Below are positions 46,439 through 56,005 of a stretch of DNA of 64,000 nucleotides, in pieces; within the stretch, counting starts at the first letter, position 1, and every line of letters starts with the position of its first letter. The position numbers were made by a program, and so were the translations under genes. Source of the stretch: Bacillus sp. HSf4 (GTDB lineage: Bacteria > Bacillota > Bacilli > Bacillales > Bacillaceae); NCBI RefSeq assembly GCF_029537375.1, contig NZ_CP120679.1, positions 2,406,001-2,470,000 on the forward strand, read 5' to 3'. A model generated the notes under the pieces. It saw only the letters and a list, made by a program, of their open reading frames with translations. It was not told where the DNA came from and searched no databases.

Positions 46439-47563
46439 TCAGTTTTCTATCGTCATCGGATTCGGCGCATATGGAACCTGTACAGATTTTGACAAGTCAT
46501 AGCTTCCGATCCTGTCGATTTTCGCATTTTCAAATCTGACTTGATTAAATCCAAAGTCCTTTGCTGTCAGGAGCAGACCTTCCACCATTAAGATGTCATC
46601 GGTTTGATTTTGAATGTCTGCAGCGGATGAGAATTGGATGACAAGCTCTTTTCCTTTTTCCTGAACATCTTGAATGAGCTTATCTCCGGTTATAATCGAT
46701 TTTAAATGAGAGCCGCTTTCCGCTGTTTGCATCATTTTGACCGCTTCTTCTATACTTTGATACGATTCTTGTGACGGTGCGAGAAATCGCTTGCCGTCAG
46801 AACTTTCATATAAAAAATAGCCTCTTTGCCCCTGATGTGTGATCGCAATGTCTGCCTCCATTCCAAAAGAATCGTATTCAGCGCCAGACTCGCCTCCGTT
46901 GGATGACAAAAACAATACAGAGTCATAGGACCCCCATTTAAAGGTTTGATTGATGGTTTCCCTCAACAGATTGAAATCCTCTTCAGAAAGCCCGGGGATC
47001 TTTTCATTGACTTGGATCGTCACTTTTTTGCTCTTTTTCTCTTCGCTGAATGTCACCTGATCAAGATAGGAAGTGTTGAATGATGTAAACTGGTCGACAT
47101 CCAGCCGAGTGTAGGCATCCAATGCATCTTCCATATCATTGATGGCGACGTTTTTACGAAGGCTGATCGGCACAACGACAGACTTGGAATCATCAACAAA
47201 TGCAAAGGTGATATAGTTGTCTTTTTGCTCGCGCGGGACGACAAAGGTGCTTGAAACTGCTGTGTCCGCGGTATCGGCCATCTCCTTTTTGCCGCTTTGG
47301 GGCTGCACCACAGAGGGCATATTCGCGTCAGAACCGTTTTGGGATCTGATTTGGTCGATTAATTGAGGAGACATCAGCATCAGAAGAAAGAGAACTAAAA
47401 CCGTCGCAGCAACTGCGCCCGCCCGCTTTTTAGGCAATTTATGTTTCGGCTGTGCCAAAACCAACTTTTGATAGATCTGATTTGCCGAACGGTTATCCTT
47501 AACCGTTGGAAGTTGGCTTAGTAACGCCTTTAGCCGTTCTTCGTTCCATTCTGACTTCTTCAT
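46439..47563 (-). CDS. rsiX: Anti-sigma-X factor RsiX
   Basis: Membrane-bound inhibitor of sigma-X. The 374-residue protein has a cytosolic N-terminal segment that would bind SigX (MKKSEWNEERLKALLSQLP), one transmembrane helix (about 48-66) and a large extracytoplasmic domain, with the KDFGFNQVRFEN-type C-terminal end seen in RsiX. Its start lies 65 bases inside sigX, so translation is coupled and the two are made in step. Confidence 0.93.
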   Translation of the reverse strand: MKKSEWNEERLKALLSQLPTVKDNRSANQIYQKLVLAQPKHKLPKKRAGAVAATVLVLFLLMLMSPQLIDQIRSQNGSDANMPSVVQPQSGKKEMADTADTAVSSTFVVPREQKDNYITFAFVDDSKSVVVPISLRKNVAINDMEDALDAYTRLDVDQFTSFNTSYLDQVTFSEEKKSKKVTIQVNEKIPGLSEEDFNLLRETINQTFKWGSYDSVLFLSSNGGESGAEYDSFGMEADIAITHQGQRGYFLYESSDGKRFLAPSQESYQSIEEAVKMMQTAESGSHLKSIITGDKLIQDVQEKGKELVIQFSSAADIQNQTDDILMVEGLLLTAKDFGFNQVRFENAKIDRIGSYDLSKSVQVPYAPNPMTIEN

Positions 47564-48228: not shown

Positions 48229-48254
48229 GCACCCGTTCTAAATGAACAGGTGCC
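48229..48254 (-). terminator. Terminator after the LCP gene (left copy of the flanking hairpin)
   Basis: Stem GCACCCGTTC with GAACAGGTGC (48229-48238 with 48244-48253, one wobble pair) and TTTTATGC in minus-strand sense. Its sequence is nearly the same as the resE terminator at 54170-54192. The rest of the gap 48084-48349 holds the sigX promoter. Confidence 0.8.
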
Positions 48255-48349
48255 AAGCTTATAAGGAACCCTCGTTTTCACTAAGTGCGCTTTCGTTCTC
48301 CATATCGGCAAGTTGGCGGATTCTTTGACATGGACTGATTTCTATCCGT

Positions 48350-49258
48350 TTATGACTTTAAATCCAATTGTCGGCGTAGCTTTTTTGAGACCCCCTTTCT
48401 CTTTTCGTCAGTCACCAGGTGGTACCATAAGCCGTCAACTTTTTTATCTTCACCTTCAATTTCTATTTGTTTAATATCCTGACCAGCTTCTTTATAAGAG
48501 CTTTGAATATCGATCATGTTGTCAAGTGTTAAGTTCGTTTTGACGTTTTTTTCTAATGCCGTTAAAATCTCTTGATAGTTTGCTAATGATTTTAATTGTG
48601 CACCTTCATGAATAATTTGGTTGATAATCTCACGCTGACGCTCTTGACGTCCAAAATCACCGCGGGGATCGTCTTTTCTCATCCGGGCATATGTAAGAGC
48701 GGTCTGACCATCAAGATGTTGTTTCCCTTTTGCTAGATGCACCCCTTCAAGGGTAAAATCAATATGATTATTCACCGTAACTCCGCCAACCGCATCTACA
48801 ATATCTTTAAACCCTTCCATATTTACTTTGATATAATAATTGATGGGAATGTTCAAAAATTGTTCCACAGTTTGAATAGTCCCTTCAATTCCGCCATAGG
48901 TGTACGCCGAATTCATTTTGGAAAAGGTATTCTTAGATTTTATAAATACCCTCGTATCACGCGGAATACTTGTCATTGTCGTTTTTTTTGTCTTCGGATT
49001 AACAGTGACCACAATCATCGAATCCGGACGGCCTTTATCACCGGGGCGCTCGTCTATCCCCAATAAAAGAATGGATATCGGATCGTGTGAAGCAGCTGCA
49101 TTCTCCTTCTCGGATTCACGATGAAGAGGTTCGTACATATGACTGATTGATTTTGCCACGTTACGGTAAATGCCGTAAGACACCAAACCGCCACTAGATA
49201 TCAATAGAACTAGAACCAGCAATATTATATTTTTCATTTTTAATTTTCTTTTTCTCAT
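48350..49258 (-). CDS. LCP (LytR-CpsA-Psr) family glycopolymer transferase
   Basis: Attaches anionic glycopolymers (teichoic acids or similar) to peptidoglycan from an undecaprenyl carrier. The 302-residue protein has an N-terminal transmembrane anchor (about 10-30) and an extracytoplasmic LCP domain with ISILLLGIDERPGDKGRPDS (split here as two motifs ILLLGID and GRPDSMIV), SIPRDTRV, NSAYTYGG and the arginine motif YARMRKDDPRGDFGRQERQ. The ATG at 49258 is chosen; a GTG two codons earlier is equally close to GGAAGGG. Last gene of the accessory block. It may act with the deacetylase gene 81 bases upstream. Confidence 0.9.
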   Translation of the reverse strand: MRKRKLKMKNIILLVLVLLISSGGLVSYGIYRNVAKSISHMYEPLHRESEKENAAASHDPISILLLGIDERPGDKGRPDSMIVVTVNPKTKKTTMTSIPRDTRVFIKSKNTFSKMNSAYTYGGIEGTIQTVEQFLNIPINYYIKVNMEGFKDIVDAVGGVTVNNHIDFTLEGVHLAKGKQHLDGQTALTYARMRKDDPRGDFGRQERQREIINQIIHEGAQLKSLANYQEILTALEKNVKTNLTLDNMIDIQSSYKEAGQDIKQIEIEGEDKKVDGLWYHLVTDEKRKGVSKKLRRQLDLKS

Positions 49259-49339
49259 TTTCACTATCCCTTCCTTGTCGATGCCTGCTCATATTGCTTC
49301 CGCAGTCGAAACCGTTATCGTTCTCTGATTATTGTTGAT

Positions 49340-50176
49340 TTATGAATTCCATCTAAAATGAACCGGCTTTATCGAATCGTGAATGGCTTTCATTTCATAC
49401 CCGTTTTCTTGTAAGTATTTCAATAATTTTTCCAAATGCGCTTCAGTCGTCGGTTTTTCATGCATTAATACGACAAGCGGCTCAACTCCGGTCAGGTTAT
49501 TGACTTGCTGAATCGCATTATTGACGAATTGACCATTTGTATTTGCAGACTTCCAGTCCTCTGAATCAACCGTCCAATCCCAAATGTTAAAATGCTCACG
49601 CCTAATGACTGCCTGAAATGGACCCGTAATATAAGGCTTTGATCCATATGGCGATCTGATCAAATGTGTGTTGACGTTGGCTGTTTCTTTGATCGTTTTA
49701 AGCGTATCGTTCATTTCTGCCGCAAAGCTTTCAGGAGATTGATAGATTTTCGATACTTGATGGGTCACTCCGTGTGACCCAACGGAGTGGCCGTTCTCCA
49801 CCATTTTCCTCACGATTTCCGGATTTTGTTCGATATTAGGTTTTAACATAAAAAACGTCGCTTTTGCATGATATTGACTGAGCAAACTTAGAATTTTTTC
49901 TGAAGCAGCCGGGTTTGGCCCGTCATCAAATGTCAAATAGACGACCTTTCCGATTTCCGGCGGTGTTTGTTTACTTTCCTTTTTCTCTGCTGTATGTTTG
50001 CTCCTTTCCGCCACCTGCTCTGAAGCGGCGGCACTTCCTTTTATTGACTTCTGCTTTGAACCTGCAAGTGCATTCCAAGACATGCATAACAAAGTCACAC
50101 CCAGGACAGTCAGCATACCCAACACTATTTTTCCTAGCCTGTTCAATTTATGAACTTTTCTTGGTGAATTCGACAC
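49340..50176 (-). CDS. Membrane-anchored polysaccharide deacetylase (NodB domain)
   Basis: Predicted metal-dependent N- or O-deacetylase acting on cell-wall polysaccharide. The 278-residue protein has a cytosolic basic start, one transmembrane helix (about 16-36), a charged linker and a carbohydrate esterase family 4 domain with VYLTFDDGPNP (metal aspartates) and HSVGSHGVTH (metal histidines), followed by RSPYGSKP and WDWTVDSEDW. The GTG start at 50176 is preceded by AAGGAG; a frame opening at 50272 runs through the promoter region. Substrate not known. Confidence 0.9.
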   Translation of the reverse strand: MSNSPRKVHKLNRLGKIVLGMLTVLGVTLLCMSWNALAGSKQKSIKGSAAASEQVAERSKHTAEKKESKQTPPEIGKVVYLTFDDGPNPAASEKILSLLSQYHAKATFFMLKPNIEQNPEIVRKMVENGHSVGSHGVTHQVSKIYQSPESFAAEMNDTLKTIKETANVNTHLIRSPYGSKPYITGPFQAVIRREHFNIWDWTVDSEDWKSANTNGQFVNNAIQQVNNLTGVEPLVVLMHEKPTTEAHLEKLLKYLQENGYEMKAIHDSIKPVHFRWNS

Positions 50177-50452
50177 TTTTTCCAACTCCTTGACTGTAGA
50201 TATGATCACTAGGTTTCTTGTAAACTCGTCACATACAAATGACAATTTTTTAGTTTTGCTGATTAAAAACAAAGTTTGCTAAGAAGGATGCTCTTTTAAT
50301 ATAAGGGGAAGATATCGCAGAAGTTCGACCAACTTGTAAACAAAATGTCACAAAAAGAAAGAAAACATCATTTTTCGGGGATAGAAAACAGGGACTTATT
50401 ACTCTGTTTGACATGATGTGATCGTAATCAACAGGAGAACATCACGAGGTAA

Positions 50453-50497
50453 GAAAAAAACCTTATTTCGGTATGAACTGAAATAAGGTTTTTTAGA
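50453..50497 (-). terminator. Terminator after the propeller gene
   Basis: Stem AACCTTATTTC with GAAATAAGGTT (50459-50469 with 50480-50490) flanked by A and T runs. The 331-base gap 50177-50507 holds this terminator and AT-rich sequence with two copies of CTTGTAAAC...GTCACA (50217-50233 and 50333-50352); no gene was seen. Confidence 0.85.
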
Positions 50498-50507
50498 GAA
50501 CAATCGG

Positions 50508-51629
50508 TTATTTAAATGTGATGATATAAGCTTGATCATCAAAAAATCGCGCTGAAGCACTTTCCGTAGAAGAATACTGGTTTTGCGCATTCACGAGCAG
50601 GCTGTTGCCATCGGGACTCCAATATATTTCTGACGGTATGGTGCCGTGGTATACCGGTTCTTCATACAGGATATTTTTTCCTTGAAGCTTACCTGCATAA
50701 ATACTGTCTTTATCATTCAAAAAGTAAGCGATTTTCTTTCGGTCATTTGAAAATGTGAACGCGGCTACTTTTTCGAGCAGAGCAGAAAGCTCGCCGTTTC
50801 GGCGATCGTATTCGTACAGGGTTTCCCCGGTACCGAGGAATACAAATTGATCATTGTTTAACCAAACAGGCTCGCCAAGGCTGTTTTGACGCTTGTCCTG
50901 AATATCGATGCGATTGCCGTTAACGGTTCCCATCATGATGCTTTCTTTCTTCCCCATCTGTAACACGGTAAGCAGCAAGCCGCGTCCATTATCAGAGATG
51001 TGAACTCCCGTAAGCGAATCTTTCTCGGCAAAACCCTTCAATAAATACGTTTTGTGCGTTTTGGAATCTGTATCGAAAACATGAAGGCTAGTCTGACCAT
51101 CTTGCCCGGCATCTATGACTAGATAACAAACGTATTTGCTGTTATTTGACCATGAAACATCTTGGACATAAACCTCACTGCTTGAGGCGAAACTTGCGAT
51201 TTCCGTTTTTTTCCCGTTTACCAACGAGATCAGATTCATTGACGCCTTATTTGATGACACGGTTACCCCGGCGATACTCTTTCCGTCCGGAGACACCTTT
51301 AGGTTGGACGTATTGCTTTCAATCCCTTGCAGATTTTCAGCTTTTTCATAAGGGGAGGATAGACGCTGAAGACGGTGTTTTGCACGTTCAGATGTCTCAT
51401 CTCCCTTGAAAAACCCAACGACGGAGTCCGATGAAGACCATCCAAGCAACTGATCTGCTCTTGGAAGGCGATATATTGTTTTTACTTGAAAGGGGCGGTT
51501 CTTCTGAACATTCTCTTCCTTGCTTGGTATAATAATGGTTTCCGAGCGTTTTCCCACATTATAACTGGACACGATAATAACGAGAAACAACAGCACCCCT
51601 GCCCATATGATAAATGGTTTGTTCTTCAT
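50508..51629 (-). CDS. Membrane-anchored predicted beta-propeller protein
   Basis: Function not recognised. The 373-residue protein has one N-terminal transmembrane helix (about 6-23) and an outside domain of repeated strand segments with TolB/WD-like signatures: VSPDGKSIAGV, DVSWSNNSKYVCYL, VHISDNGRGLLL, WLNNDQFVF, FTFSNDRKKIAYF and YWSPDGNSLLV. The ATG overlaps the kinase stop (TAATG), so it is translated with the kinase. A sensory accessory role for the two-component system is an inference. The repeat spacing fits a six-bladed propeller. Confidence 0.8.
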   Translation of the reverse strand: MKNKPFIIWAGVLLFLVIIVSSYNVGKRSETIIIPSKEENVQKNRPFQVKTIYRLPRADQLLGWSSSDSVVGFFKGDETSERAKHRLQRLSSPYEKAENLQGIESNTSNLKVSPDGKSIAGVTVSSNKASMNLISLVNGKKTEIASFASSSEVYVQDVSWSNNSKYVCYLVIDAGQDGQTSLHVFDTDSKTHKTYLLKGFAEKDSLTGVHISDNGRGLLLTVLQMGKKESIMMGTVNGNRIDIQDKRQNSLGEPVWLNNDQFVFLGTGETLYEYDRRNGELSALLEKVAAFTFSNDRKKIAYFLNDKDSIYAGKLQGKNILYEEPVYHGTIPSEIYWSPDGNSLLVNAQNQYSSTESASARFFDDQAYIITFK

Positions 51630-53080
51630 TATTTCTCAACCTTTGCGTAAGCTAATTCAACCTGAATCGTTGTATCGTTTTCCTTGTAGAACATCTCAAT
51701 AGTTCCTCCGTGTTCATCAACAATTGTTTTCACAATGCTTAATCCCAAACCTACACTTCCCTCTTCCGTGATCTTTTGGTTGACCGAATAAAAGGGCTGA
51801 AACATTTTAGAGTGTTGGTTATGTTCAAATGGAGCACTCGGATTCTTGAACGTAAAAAGAACTTTTTCTCCAACGATCCCGGCTTTAATGATGATTTCCG
51901 AATGGGATAAGCTGTATTTGATCGCATTGTCCAGCAAATTGATAAAAAGCTGGCGCAGCCTATTCACCTGACCGTGAACGTATAGATCTTCTTCAATGCC
52001 ACAGGTGATCGTTTTCTTATACCGTTCCGCCCGAAACTTCATCGATTCGCAAACATCTTTTAAAATGTCCCCTGCGTCGATTCTGGCAAACTGATCATCC
52101 TTGGACACTTCCCGGGATACTTCAAGAAGCTTGATCACCAAATTGTGCAGGCGCCGGCTTTCTTCAACAATGTGGTTCATTCCTTTATCAAAAAATACCC
52201 GATCCGCTTCCCCTTTTGCTTTTATGATCTCGGCATATCCTTGGATGGAAGTCAAAGGTGTTTTCAGCTCATGCGTCATATTGTCAAAAAAGCGTTTCTC
52301 TTGCTCGTTCAGTTCCTTTAAGCGATCCCGATCCCTTTCAATGGTTGAAATCTGTTCTCTAATCCTGTTGATCATATCATTGAAATTGACGGCAAGCTGG
52401 CCAATCTCATCTTTTCTCTGAAAGTGGATATCCACATCCAACTTGCCCTTTTTGACTTGTGATGAAGCCTCTGTCAGCTTCACGAGCGGAATCGTGATAT
52501 GTCTGGAGAGGATATAGGAGAAAAGAAACGCCGCCACAAATATGGCAAGGGCGATGTAAAAAACGATATCGAGAATCTCTCCGCTTTGCTTATAGAGCAG
52601 GTCAAAATCTTTCGAAAAACGCAATATGCCTACTTTTGTTCCGTCAATGACAACTGGATATGAGAAAAATACCTCCGCTTTATTTCGATCATAGGTGATA
52701 TGATAGGCGGTCTTTCCTTTGATAGCCTGTTTAAGATCATCATCACTTCCTTCGGAAAACACCTTTTTGTCGGAAGAAGACAGCAAAGTGCCATCCACGG
52801 TATAAACACCGACATTGCTTCCTGTAGAGTGATTTAAATTATCCACCATTTCATCGGCCATATCGCCAAAATAAAGTTCATTGTTTTTATAATGATTGAT
52901 TAAAAATGCTTGGTTTACATACACGGTACTGTTTTTTTTCAATTCGACCAAATCCGATGTCACAATGTTTTCATTACTCGACCAAATGACGTTCTTGACC
53001 GTATGATTGAGCACAAGGAAGGAGAGAGAAAAAATCAGAAAAAAGCCCACAATAAACTTGCCCTTGATGGTGCGTAACAC
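51629..53080 (-). CDS. Sensor histidine kinase of an accessory two-component system
   Basis: Membrane histidine kinase of 483 residues. Two transmembrane helices (about 9-27 and 170-190) enclose an extracytoplasmic sensor region of about 140 residues that looks like a Cache-type fold (GVYTVDGTLLSSSD ... YPVVIDGTKVGILRFS). HAMP follows (about 191-245), then the dimerisation domain with His270 in FFDNMTHELKTPL, and the ATPase domain with NLLDNAIKY and GLGLSIVKTIV. The start is GTG, preceded by GAGGAGTAGAG. It lies 3 bases after its response regulator. Confidence 0.93.
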   Translation of the reverse strand: MLRTIKGKFIVGFFLIFSLSFLVLNHTVKNVIWSSNENIVTSDLVELKKNSTVYVNQAFLINHYKNNELYFGDMADEMVDNLNHSTGSNVGVYTVDGTLLSSSDKKVFSEGSDDDLKQAIKGKTAYHITYDRNKAEVFFSYPVVIDGTKVGILRFSKDFDLLYKQSGEILDIVFYIALAIFVAAFLFSYILSRHITIPLVKLTEASSQVKKGKLDVDIHFQRKDEIGQLAVNFNDMINRIREQISTIERDRDRLKELNEQEKRFFDNMTHELKTPLTSIQGYAEIIKAKGEADRVFFDKGMNHIVEESRRLHNLVIKLLEVSREVSKDDQFARIDAGDILKDVCESMKFRAERYKKTITCGIEEDLYVHGQVNRLRQLFINLLDNAIKYSLSHSEIIIKAGIVGEKVLFTFKNPSAPFEHNQHSKMFQPFYSVNQKITEEGSVGLGLSIVKTIVDEHGGTIEMFYKENDTTIQVELAYAKVEK

Positions 53081-53083
53081 GCT

Positions 53084-53785
53084 CTACTCCTCCTGCTTCT
53101 CGAATTTATATCCGATACCGAACACCGTTGTGATCAAGTCGCTTGCATCAAGCTTTTTACGGAGTCTTTGAATATGGGTATCAACTGTACGTGTATCCCC
53201 GGCAAAATCGTATCCCCAGATGAATTCCAAAAGCTCTGAACGCGTGAAAACTTTTCCGCGATGGCCAATCAAAGTCATGAGCAAATCAAATTCTTTAGGA
53301 GTCAATTCGACTGCCGTTCCGTTTTTTGTCACAAGCCTTTCACCTGGAACAATCACAATATTTTTAAAGCGAATAACATCCTCTTTTACCGTTTCCTGCT
53401 CATTCAAATGATGAGCTTGTTCGAGACGGCGAAGTATCGTACGAATTCGGGCCACAACTTCGCGCAGATCAAACGGCTTTGTAATATAATCGTCGGCCCC
53501 GAATTCCAATCCAAGTACTTTATCCGTGATATCTGACTTTGCTGTGATCATTAGTATCGGAATATTGTAGCTCTCGGTTACTTTTTTACAAATATCCAAT
53601 CCGCTGCAGTCCGGCAGCATCCAATCGAGAAGCAGAAGATCAGGTTTGGATTGATCTATTTTACTCATTCCTAACGAACCGCTATTGACAGTACACGTTT
53701 CAAATCCTTCCGCCGCCAGCCCGTAAGAAAGCAAATCAGCGATTGGTTCATCATCTTCAATAATTAGTATTTTGGTTTTATCCAT
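53084..53785 (-). CDS. OmpR/PhoB-family response regulator
   Basis: DNA-binding response regulator paired with the kinase that follows. The 233-residue protein has a receiver domain with the acidic pair IIEDDE, the phosphorylated Asp54 in LLLDWMLPD and Lys in YITKPFD, then a winged-helix domain (ELTPKEFDLLMTLI, RTVDTHIQRLRKKL). ATG start at 53785. Upstream are a TATAAT element (53844-53849) and a palindrome near 53931-53949 that could be operator sites. Confidence 0.93.
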   Translation of the reverse strand: MDKTKILIIEDDEPIADLLSYGLAAEGFETCTVNSGSLGMSKIDQSKPDLLLLDWMLPDCSGLDICKKVTESYNIPILMITAKSDITDKVLGLEFGADDYITKPFDLREVVARIRTILRRLEQAHHLNEQETVKEDVIRFKNIVIVPGERLVTKNGTAVELTPKEFDLLMTLIGHRGKVFTRSELLEFIWGYDFAGDTRTVDTHIQRLRKKLDASDLITTVFGIGYKFEKQEE

Positions 53786-53843
53786 TAAACATCACTCATT
53801 CCCTGTCTCATGCGCTTATTTTGCATTGCATCCTTCTATAGAG

Positions 53844-53849
53844 ATTATA
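53844..53849 (-). promoter_or_regulatory. Candidate -10 element of the accessory two-component operon
   Basis: A minus-strand TATAAT about 60 bases upstream of the response regulator start. No good -35 box is 17 bases upstream, which would fit activator dependence. The 438-base gap 53786-54223 also holds the palindrome described next and the resE terminator; no gene was seen. Confidence 0.4.
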
Positions 53850-53930
53850 CATAAATCCAGGCTAAAGTCTTCATTAGATGGACTCCACCTGATTCATTCC
53901 TCCCCAATCAATAGGGGATGGCTGCCATAC

Positions 53931-53949
53931 TTCCGCTTTAAGCGGAAGC
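53931..53949. repeat. Near-perfect palindrome in the response regulator upstream region
   Basis: CTTCCGCTT-T-AAGCGGAAG, a 9-bp arm with a single central base, followed by a further AGCGGA copy. No T run follows, so it is more like an operator than a terminator. Confidence 0.5.
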
Positions 53950-54163
53950 GGACTTTACGGTTTAGAAAAAAACGGACTGCCTTTATAGGGTATCAGAATG
54001 GAAACGACTATTTCCATATGCACTTACGACTATGAAAATTTCCGGCTTTTCGCATTCTCCGCCCGTTTTATTTTCATCTTCTCACTCTTTTAACGACAAC
54101 GAAGACCTAAATGTTTCAAGGTGAGCGGAATGTTTACAAATTGGTTACATTTTTGCTGAAAAA

Positions 54164-54194
54164 CATAAACACCTGTTCGAAATGAACAGGTGCT
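54164..54194 (-). terminator. Terminator after resE (right copy of the flanking hairpin)
   Basis: Perfect 9-bp stem CACCTGTTC/GAACAGGTG (54170-54178 with 54184-54192), then TTTATGTTTTT in minus-strand sense. Nearly the same sequence as the hairpin at 48229-48254. Confidence 0.85.
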
Positions 54195-54223
54195 CTCTGT
54201 TTCTTATGGAACAATATTCTTCG

Positions 54224-56005
54224 TCAAATTTGGCCAGCATCTTTCCTTTTTCTTGGAATATAGAACGTAAATGTCGTTCCTTCATTCAGCCTGCTGTGGA
54301 CCGCGATCGATCCGTTGTGCGCATCGACGATGTTTTTGACGATCGCAAGTCCGAGACCTGTTCCGCCTTTTCCCCTTGTTCTCGCTTTGTCGGCTTTGTA
54401 AAAGCGTTCAAAGATAAACGGAAGGTCTTCTTCCGGTATACCGCTTCCCGAATCTTTTACGGCAGTCTTCAAGCCGCTTGCGGCGGACTGCACTTCAACA
54501 TGGACGGTGCCACTTGCATTTGTATGGCGCAACGCGTTGTCAATCAGATTGGTCAGTACCTGCTCCATTTTGTCCGGATCAAACTCAAATTGCGCTTCCT
54601 GCAAATCGAGATTGTGGGAGAGGGTGATCTCCTTGTCTGCTGCCACTCCATAAAACTTGCGGAACACCCTCTCGAAAAATTCTTTGAGCTCAACAGTTTC
54701 CACATTTAAGGAAATATGTCCAGCTTCCATTCTGGCAAGATCAAGCAAGTCGTTTACCAATCTGCCCATTCGCAAAGATTCATCATAAATCACCTGGGCG
54801 ATTTCCTTTTTCTCTTCTTCAGAGCTGGCGATATCATCCACTATGGCTTCGCTGTACCCTTGGAGCATCGAAATCGGTGTTCTCAGCTCATGGCTGACAT
54901 TGGCGATAAAATCTTTTCTCAGCTTGTCGAGCCGTCGTTCCTCTGTCATATCCCTCAAGACGGCGACAGCTCCGCGCACATGTGCCTGGTTGTAAAGCGG
55001 GCTCATTAAGAGCACCCATGACCTTCCCTGCAACGTCATTTCAATCATCTGTTCTTTTTCCGTGCTGACGGTGTTTTGAAACAGTTCCCTCGCTTCGGGA
55101 GGCAGCTCATGTCCCTCTTTTACATTCATGTTCTGCTCATAATACCACGCCTGCAAAAAGCGCTCTGCCGGAGGGTTGGTGACAAGGATCGTGCCGTCGA
55201 TATTGATGGTGATCACACCGTCGGCCATGCTGCTTAAAATGTTTGATAAATGCTCTTTTTCCTGATTTAAAGCCGTAATATGAAACTTCAGCTGGCGTCC
55301 CATTTGGTTAAAAGCGATCGCCAACTCGCCGATCTCATCCTGCGTTAAAATCGGAATTTTCGTGTCAAACTTTCCTTTGGCCAAATCCTGTGCACCTTGC
55401 CGCATTTTTCTGAGCGGGTAAGTGATCCGGCTTGACAGGAAGAACGCGAAGATCGTCGTCAAAACGATCGCGATCGCCGCAGCAAAAAGGATATATCTTG
55501 TCGTATGCTGTGTCGTATCCTTGACGGCGAGAAGCGACTGGGAAATAAACACCATGCCCCCGTTATCGCCTTTCCCGTATGGAACACCGACAATCAGCTG
55601 ATCGTTTTTATGGTTTTTGAGGGCCAGCCGCTTTTGCACTTTTTGATGATGGGTGAGCGCATCATTCAAATCGGAATCCCGTTTGATTTCCTTTAAAGTG
55701 ATCTGGGACACCTTTTCATTTTTGCGCGGAGAATTCCAATATTCATCATCACTTTTTATGATCGCGATACTCGTCAGTTCATCCGCAAGCTCCCATGAGA
55801 TGGACCTGGCGACCTCCTGGTCTTTGTGGTTTTCCATAATCACAGCCACTTTGCTGGCGAGCTTCGTCAGATCGGCCTCCGCTTCATCGACATGGTAGTT
55901 TTCAATGAATTCAAGCAGAAAAACGGTAAGAATAAATAAGACAAATGAAACCAAAAGAAGGATGGTAAACCAGAGCTTACCAACGACACTCTTCCAAAAC
56001 TTCAT
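54224..56005 (-). CDS. resE: Sensor histidine kinase ResE
   Basis: Sensor kinase for oxygen limitation and nitric oxide, activating anaerobic and respiratory genes through ResD. The 593-residue protein has two transmembrane helices (about 10-30 and 175-195) around an outside domain, HAMP (about 196-248), a PAS-like domain ([22 protein letters not shown]), the phosphorylated histidine in [16 protein letters not shown] and an ATPase domain with [10 protein letters not shown] and [11 protein letters not shown]. It overlaps the resD stop by 4 bases (ATGA). Confidence 0.95.

What the first reader, a model, noticed from the sequence alone, without database searches (positions are those of the whole stretch)
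48229..54223. Accessory envelope block between two near-identical terminators
Five genes (response regulator, kinase, membrane propeller, polysaccharide deacetylase, LCP transferase) stand between sigX and resE, which are adjacent in B. subtilis as I recall. Both ends carry hairpins that share CACC(T/C)GTTC(G/T)AAATGAACAGGTGC plus a preceding CATAAA, while the flanks differ. The right copy ends resE and the left ends the LCP gene. A simple reading is a terminator duplicated when the block was inserted. The gene set suggests a wall-polymer response that sits next to the envelope sigma factor gene. No integrase, IS or tRNA was seen.
Basis: partly seen in the sequence, partly recalled or inferred. 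Interest (0 to 1): 0.72.

Follow-up and report, generated by a model that had tools for sequence, protein, structure and literature searches.

The report
Inserted wall-armouring operon between duplicated terminators
A self-contained, mobile set of five cell-wall genes has been inserted into the end-of-gene hairpin of resE in one group of Bacillus species, doubling that hairpin in the same way that a hairpin-seeking transposon family of these genomes does.

Summary
Five genes (response regulator, kinase, membrane propeller, deacetylase, LCP transferase) lie between resE and sigX, between two hairpins found nowhere else in the genome. Of 44 genomes of the genus, 7 have the block there and 37 do not. 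Four of the 37 carry the same cassette, in the same order, at three other sites, so it is mobile. "Terminator duplicated at insertion" is supported and gains a mechanism: IS1182-family elements and a 175-bp repeat insert into terminators here and in relatives, copying the whole hairpin. A decayed IS1182-like end abuts the left hairpin; the other end was not recognised and no transposase remains. The regulator-kinase-propeller core recurs at 10 of 10 distant Bacilli loci examined. One operator precedes the deacetylase in 11 of 11 Bacillus cassettes and occurs at 9 of 10 distant loci, ahead of acyltransferase, DUF418 or LCP genes where checked. Best reading: a relocatable peptidoglycan-modification response whose place beside sigX is probably an accident.

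The parts
54170..54193 (-). Hairpin A: stem-loop behind resE, read as the upstream copy of the duplicated resE terminator
   Evidence: exact match; one of 2 in the genome; lies directly after a stretch that follows resE in 34 of 35 loci
48230..48253 (-). Hairpin B: stem-loop behind the LCP gene followed by TTTT, read as the downstream copy that kept the T-run of the resE terminator
48254..48284 (+). Decayed IS1182-like terminal sequence abutting hairpin B (AGCTTATA-AGGAACCC.. against AGCTTGTAGAGAAACCC..)
   Evidence: stronger in G037, G007 and G027 than in the window
53084..53785 (-). OmpR/PhoB-type response regulator
   Evidence: Pfam Response_reg + Trans_reg_C
51629..53080 (-). Sensor histidine kinase with two hydrophobic segments (about 4-28 and 165-197)
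   Evidence: HAMP, HisKA, HATPase_c; hydropathy
50508..51629 (-). N-terminally anchored beta-propeller, presumed extracytoplasmic sensor subunit
   Evidence: AlphaFold model, mean pLDDT 82, one helix then mostly strands; best PDB matches include many beta-propellers at TM about 0.5; PD40
50454..50494 (-). Terminator hairpin behind the propeller gene, conserved in 11 of 11 Bacillus cassettes
   Evidence: alignment
50311..50352 (-). 42-bp conserved operator in front of the deacetylase gene (read from the minus strand), with -10-like TATATT at 50298-50303
   Evidence: 11 of 11 Bacillus cassettes with 1-4 mismatches, 9 of 10 distant loci with 5-11; none with up to 16 in 28 control loci of 366 kb; its 22-base core occurs once in the own genome
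49340..50272 (-). CE4 polysaccharide deacetylase, membrane anchored (the true start is probably inside this ORF)
   Evidence: Pfam 107 bits; closest solved structures are peptidoglycan GlcNAc deacetylases; CE4-type motifs present (motif names recalled)
48350..49264 (-). LCP-family glycopolymer-peptidoglycan transferase, TagU-like
   Evidence: Pfam 173 bits; closest solved structure TagU 6uf6
50750..53150 (-). HK-propeller segment 96-98% identical in DNA to B. haynesii (G010), neighbouring cassette stretches 83-90%: recent allele exchange
   Evidence: sliding identity

Best explanation
The block is a mobile five-gene cassette for peptidoglycan modification. It entered the resE terminator once, in the ancestor of the seven block-bearing genomes, by a hairpin-targeting event of the IS1182 type. 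The element joined at the foot of the resE hairpin and the whole hairpin was copied. Copy A stayed with resE and was parted from its T-run; copy B kept the T-run and now ends the LCP gene. The transposase and one end have since decayed (inferred). Functionally, the kinase with its outer-face propeller senses a wall signal. The response regulator binds the 42-bp operator and switches on the deacetylase-LCP operon, which de-N-acetylates peptidoglycan (expected to lower lysozyme or muramidase attack) and attaches a wall glycopolymer. Shown: gene order, insertion, four sites in all, duplicated hairpins, hairpin-duplicating IS1182 elements in this genome, one IS-like end, operator conservation. Inferred: that an IS1182-type element carried the cassette, that the regulator binds the operator, the signal, and the enzyme activities.
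For: Block in 7 of 44 genomes, absent from the junction in 37. The 7 are one clade whose sister pair lacks the block here. The cassette lies elsewhere in 4 genomes at 3 other sites; two of these share a 5.7-kb unit at 90% in different surroundings. The window's genome has 5 open IS1182 transposase genes. Of 45 transposase matches in 13 genomes I examined the junctions of 9: both ends were recognised in 8, and 8 of 8 lie between abutting direct repeats of 11-25 bp that are hairpins or short palindromes (2 of these are own-genome copies). Of 318 matches to the 175-bp repeat in 5 genomes, 18 loci were examined: both ends recognised in 16, duplicated hairpins abutting within 2 bases in 14 (6 of 7 in the own genome). 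The same repeat hit the resE terminator itself in G022 and duplicated it. IS-like end at hairpin B: in G037, G007 and G027 none of 20000 random 35-mers scores as high, in the window 3; 26 empty gaps reach 22 at most, against 26-36. Operator: 11 of 11 and 9 of 10 loci. At six distant loci checked, the genes behind it are Acyl_transf_3 (OatA-like by recall), DUF418, GDSL-like or LCP.
Against: The inner end next to hairpin A is not recognisable as an IS end. There is no transposase in the block. The IS-like end is weak in G010 and G012 and not seen in G017 (fractions 0.0017, 0.068, 0.44), and the seven genomes are related, not independent. LCP-downstream stretches at the other sites carry no such end (best scores 16-20), so the end need not be part of the mobile unit. 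At two other sites the cassette lies between quite different repeats (a partial acetyltransferase gene; a tRNA-Leu fragment), so more than one route of movement is likely. In the published IS1272 and TnSha1 cases hairpins are deleted wholly or in part, not duplicated. In a low-GC control 15 of 20000 35-mers reached the window's score of 26, 4 reached 30 and 2 reached 32; that sample was drawn from loci that hold the ends themselves. The operator consensus was written after seeing the loci; within cassette loci three further places match it with 15-16 mismatches by chance.
Confidence: 0.62

Rival explanations
1. An IS1182-type element first inserted alone into the resE terminator, duplicating it. 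The cassette came later by homologous or illegitimate recombination into that IS (natural transformation), so the hairpins date the IS and not the cassette.
For: Only one IS-like end is left and the cassettes at other sites have none. A filler of roughly 250-500 bp (my estimate) separates hairpin A from the conserved RR promoter. HK-propeller alleles are exchanged by recombination in this group.
Against: No IS interior was found in the filler: one 13-bp and one 16-bp match at E 0.02 in comparisons of 7 fillers with 3 IS sequences.
Confidence: 0.25
2. The cassette was integrated by a single crossover of circular DNA or by end-joining with limited homology; the two hairpins are the repeated homology, and no transposon was involved.
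For: Direct repeats of other kinds flank the cassette at two other sites, as single-crossover integration would leave.
Against: The cassettes at other sites lack this hairpin's arm sequences. An IS-like end sits exactly at hairpin B.
Confidence: 0.12
3. Ancestral arrangement: the block was always between resE and sigX and was lost in the others.
For: The propeller tree is only mildly at odds with vertical descent (AU p 0.04).
Against: 37 of 44 genomes, including the sister pair, lack it here, and the gap is a uniform 186-212 bp in 33 of the 37; the same gene order exists at three other sites.
Confidence: 0.01

Closest known systems
IS1182-family elements that target hairpins (IS1272; composite TnSha1 carrying sh-fabI; PMC5678879 and PMC4923244, passages read)
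   Same: Target is an inverted repeat, often a terminator; a passenger gene can be carried; one end may be a diverged repeat
   Different: There the hairpin is wholly or partly deleted; here and in the Bacillus elements examined it is duplicated. The window block has no transposase.
WalRK (YycFG) two-component system
   Same: Best NCBIfam matches of RR and HK; direct-repeat operator of similar spacing (WalR box recalled)
   Different: Far below the equivalog cut-offs (RR 234.3 of 340, HK 171 of 725 bits); mobile; paired with a propeller; own operator
Peptidoglycan GlcNAc deacetylases of CE4 (PgdA-type; also MurNAc deacetylase PdaC)
   Same: Domain, catalytic-type motifs, membrane anchor
   Different: Below the best PgdA-type equivalog cut-off (156.8 of 400 bits); in a cassette with its own regulator
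TagU/TagT/TagV LCP transferases
   Same: LCP domain; GRPDSM, IPRDT and DPRGDFGR stretches present
   Different: TagU equivalog score 392.1 of a cut-off of 441: read as an additional LCP, not TagU itself

Membership tests
Insertion of the IS1182 hairpin-duplicating type | Direct copies of the target hairpin at both ends | tested here: met
   same in 8 of 8 IS and 14 of 16 small-repeat copies with both ends recognised
Insertion of the IS1182 hairpin-duplicating type | Terminal sequence of the element at the LCP-side junction (hairpin B) | tested here: met
   clear in 3 of 7 genomes, good in the window, weak in 2, not seen in 1
Insertion of the IS1182 hairpin-duplicating type | Terminal sequence of the element at the resE-side junction (hairpin A) | tested here: inconclusive
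   begins TCAG in 4 of 7 genomes, but no alignment beats shuffles (lowest p 0.126)
Insertion of the IS1182 hairpin-duplicating type | Transposase gene inside the element | tested here: not met
   the five block genes are none; transposase genes lie elsewhere in the genome
OmpR/PhoB-type two-component system | Receiver + winged-helix regulator beside HisKA/HATPase kinase | tested here: met
WalRK | NCBIfam equivalog cut-offs of YycF and WalK | tested here: not met
CE4 deacetylase | Polysacc_deac_1 domain and motifs TFDDGP, SHGVTH, RxPYG, DWxxD, LMHE | tested here: met
   motif roles recalled
LCP transferase | LytR_cpsA_psr domain above the gathering score | tested here: met
Integrative island at a tRNA gene | Flanking tRNA and integrase | tested here: not met
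   no tRNA in the window, no integrase among the five genes; in G015 a tRNA-Leu and its 98-bp copy flank the region
Known anti-phage system | PADLOC match for block genes | tested here: not met
   only weak matches of HK and RR (16.8-25.8 bits), none for the other three
Lysozyme-resistance determinant | Loss of the gene raises lysozyme sensitivity | not testable with these tools
   bench test needed

The most novel reading that the evidence does not exclude
Response regulator, kinase and surface propeller form a three-part wall sensor that is conserved with its operator from Bacillus to distant Bacilli while its target genes are swapped among different wall-modifying enzymes (deacetylase, acyltransferase, LCP). 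In Bacillus it travels as a cassette that IS1182-type elements place into transcription terminators, a safe harbour in which the copied hairpin at once supplies the newcomer's own terminator.
Probability: 0.35. Interest if true: 0.66.

Novelty: new variant of a known kind. Interest (0 to 1): 0.52.

Why it matters
It gives a worked example of how a regulated operon can be dropped between two regulatory genes with little harm: the target is a terminator and the terminator is copied. It also defines, by sequence alone, a regulator, its likely operator and its likely targets in a family of wall-response systems for which no describing paper appeared in the searches made. That is directly testable by deletion and reporter fusion in ordinary laboratory bacilli.

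Tried and rejected
Plasmid and phage records: no propeller match. The 175-bp repeat as part of the block: no copy in the window, best E 0.10. IS remnants in the filler between hairpin A and RR: one 13-bp and one 16-bp match. Similarity of the flanks of hairpins A and B beyond the hairpin, within genomes: downstream p 0.0065 in the window and 0.0325 in G017, 0.57-0.83 in the other five; upstream p 0.078-0.76; over all pairs upstream 0.002, downstream 0.25. These are mixed and were not used. A second operator in front of RR: none seen by eye in the alignment. The random-junction control was spoiled by loci that hold the repeats themselves and is not used. The gap control left out 2 of 28 fetched block-less loci (L101, L109). 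The family search gave no propeller outside the genus in 36 further genomes. The order search (397 genomes) found it only in the window's genome plus one weak partial hit. The class search (398 genomes) found 10 good matches besides the window's genome and eight weak ones below 27 bits, which were dropped. Literature: eight searches; two papers read in passages only (PMC5678879, PMC4923244); all others seen as search listings.
Full report
What is there. Between resE and sigX stand five genes in one direction: response regulator (RR), kinase (HK), propeller (PROP), deacetylase (PDA) and LCP. A terminator behind PROP and a gap with a conserved promoter-like stretch split them into RR-HK-PROP and PDA-LCP. 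The block is 40.9% GC against 46.0% for the window.

The junction across the genus. A propeller search found 11 of 44 same-genus genomes; SigX was found in 44 of 44. tblastn of ten window genes shows the block between resE and sigX in 7 of 44 and absent there in 37 of 44. The gap is 186-212 bp in 33 of the 37, 332 (G008) and 414 bp (G022) in two, and 833 and 1065 bp in G029 and G006. In a ResD+ResE+SigX tree of 25 rows the 7 form a clade (88/87) and G006+G029 are its sister (100/100).

The cassette elsewhere. The same five genes in the same order lie at another place in G006 and G029 (one shared site, between an aldo-keto reductase gene and an acetyltransferase/htpG region), in G033 (between an acetyltransferase beside an arsenate cluster and an EamA-type gene) and in G015 (gene names from reading the translations). 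G033 and G015 share a 5.7-kb unit at 90%; the only other match between the two stretches is 0.47 kb at 68% some kilobases away. That defines the mobile unit. In G006 and G029 a decayed partial copy of the acetyltransferase gene flanks the other side; in G015 a tRNA-Leu and a 98-bp, 88% copy of it flank the region. The propeller tree joins the block propellers to subtilis-type ones (95/90); joining them with the changyiensis-WMMC1349-CLL-7-23 group is mildly rejected (AU p 0.04). The core tree firmly rejects joining block genomes to subtilis-type genomes (p 5e-11; 'subtilis-type' is my label).

Why the hairpins are a target duplication. In relatives the resE terminator directly follows a conserved stretch. 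Hairpin A follows that same stretch; hairpin B precedes the T-run and the sigX promoter region. So A keeps the upstream flank and B the downstream flank of one ancestral terminator. B is followed by TTTT in 7 of 7 genomes; A has no run of four T directly behind the stem in the six others, although T counts in the next 8 bases overlap (A 3-6, B 4-5). The same resE terminator was hit independently in G022 by a 175-bp repeat, again with the hairpin doubled. That repeat has 72-75 matches in each of four pumilus-like genomes (my label) and 26 in the window's own genome. The window's genome also has 5 open IS1182-family genes (496.6 bits, cut-off 270). Of the 45 transposase matches in 13 genomes I looked at 9 (all with long open frames). 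Both ends were recognised in 8, and 8 of 8 lie between abutting direct repeats of 11-25 bp that form hairpins or short palindromes; 2 of the 8 are own-genome copies. Of 18 repeat loci given, both ends were recognised in 16, and 14 of 16 lie between duplicated hairpins within 2 bases. The exceptions are L119, where one copy stands 17 bases off, and L129, where the two sides differ. This is the outcome that the IS1272 paper draws as 'pathway b' and does not observe for IS1272 (PMC5678879, passages).

A trace of the element. The 30 bases next to hairpin B align to the end of the genome's IS1182 element. In G037, G007 and G027 none of 20000 random window 35-mers scores as high; in the window 3 do; fractions are 0.0017 in G010, 0.068 in G012 and 0.44 in G017. 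The seven are not independent. No 35-mer of 26 block-less resE-sigX gaps scores above 22. In a low-GC control from the block loci themselves, 15 of 20000 reach 26 and 2 reach 32. The inner side of hairpin A gives nothing significant (lowest p 0.126). LCP-downstream stretches at the other sites score 16-20, so the trace belongs to this insertion and not to the cassette in general.

How it works. The strongest functional evidence is the operator. A 42-bp stretch with TGTGACA and TGTTTACA half-sites, just ahead of a -10-like TATATT or TATAGT in most loci, precedes PDA in 11 of 11 Bacillus cassettes (1-4 mismatches to a consensus that I wrote from the loci). It occurs in 9 of 10 distant loci (5-11 mismatches; L191 has none). 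In 28 control loci of 366 kb the best place has 17 mismatches; three chance-like places with 15-16 mismatches lie within the cassette loci. In the window's genome the 22-base core occurs once. In the 10 distant loci (all 10 good hits of the class search besides the window's genome), RR, HK and PROP are adjacent in 10 of 10. At six distant loci (L189, L192-L196) the genes behind the operator were checked: Acyl_transf_3 (L193, L194, and L192 behind a second operator copy), DUF418 (L189, L192), LCP (L196, and further along in L193 and L194), and GDSL-like proteins whose Pfam scores stay under the cut-off (L195; also L193). The first type resembles the O-acetyltransferase OatA (recalled, not tested). 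One regulator with exchangeable wall-modifying targets argues for a peptidoglycan-modification response. PDA is closest to solved peptidoglycan GlcNAc deacetylases and has the CE4 motifs; LCP is closest to TagU. The propeller is modelled as one helix plus a beta-propeller. A lipobox-like motif is present in 44 of 48 of the more distant homologues (P73-P120) and in 0 of the 61 closest (P1-P61); P62-P72 were not counted. So it probably faces outward, and in Bacillus is held by its signal anchor (inference).

Allele exchange. Between about 53150 and 50750 the window is 96-98% identical to B. haynesii (G010), while neighbouring cassette stretches are 83-90%. Over most of the same stretch G010 and G017, elsewhere 89-99% alike, drop to 80-91%. 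HK and PROP move together, which fits a sensor pair.

Verdict. The new parts are the mechanism, the mobility, the operator and the distant relatives. A tie to sigX is not supported by anything found.

Noticed in passing
window 54194-54226 and L077-L110: A stretch G(A/C)CGAA(G/C)AATnTTGTTnCATnnGAAACA directly behind resE is found in 34 of 35 loci, although it is non-coding in the window. Role unknown; an antisense promoter or a terminator part are guesses.
   Followed up: partly
window 50750-53150 against G010 (L078): Sharp 96-98% identity block over HK and PROP with B. haynesii: recent allele replacement.
   Followed up: yes
L109:2830-3004 and L114-L131: A 175-bp MITE-like repeat that inserts in terminators and doubles the hairpin; 72-75 matches in each of four pumilus-like genomes, 26 in the window's genome. 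No paper describing it appeared in searches.
   Followed up: partly
L083:10376-11440 and L084:2940-3772: The enlarged resE-sigX gap of G006 and G029 seems to hold remains of a membrane-protein gene on the opposite strand (read by eye).
   Followed up: no
L080 hairpin B (G037): The loop of hairpin B is inverted (TAAAT instead of ATTTA) with the stem unchanged.
   Followed up: no
L073 and L074: The cassette lies beside a decayed direct partial copy of the acetyltransferase gene that stands intact on its other side.
   Followed up: partly
window 46439-47498 (rsiX): rsiX is far less conserved than sigX in the group: 69-79% against 87-91% DNA identity to six genomes.
   Followed up: no
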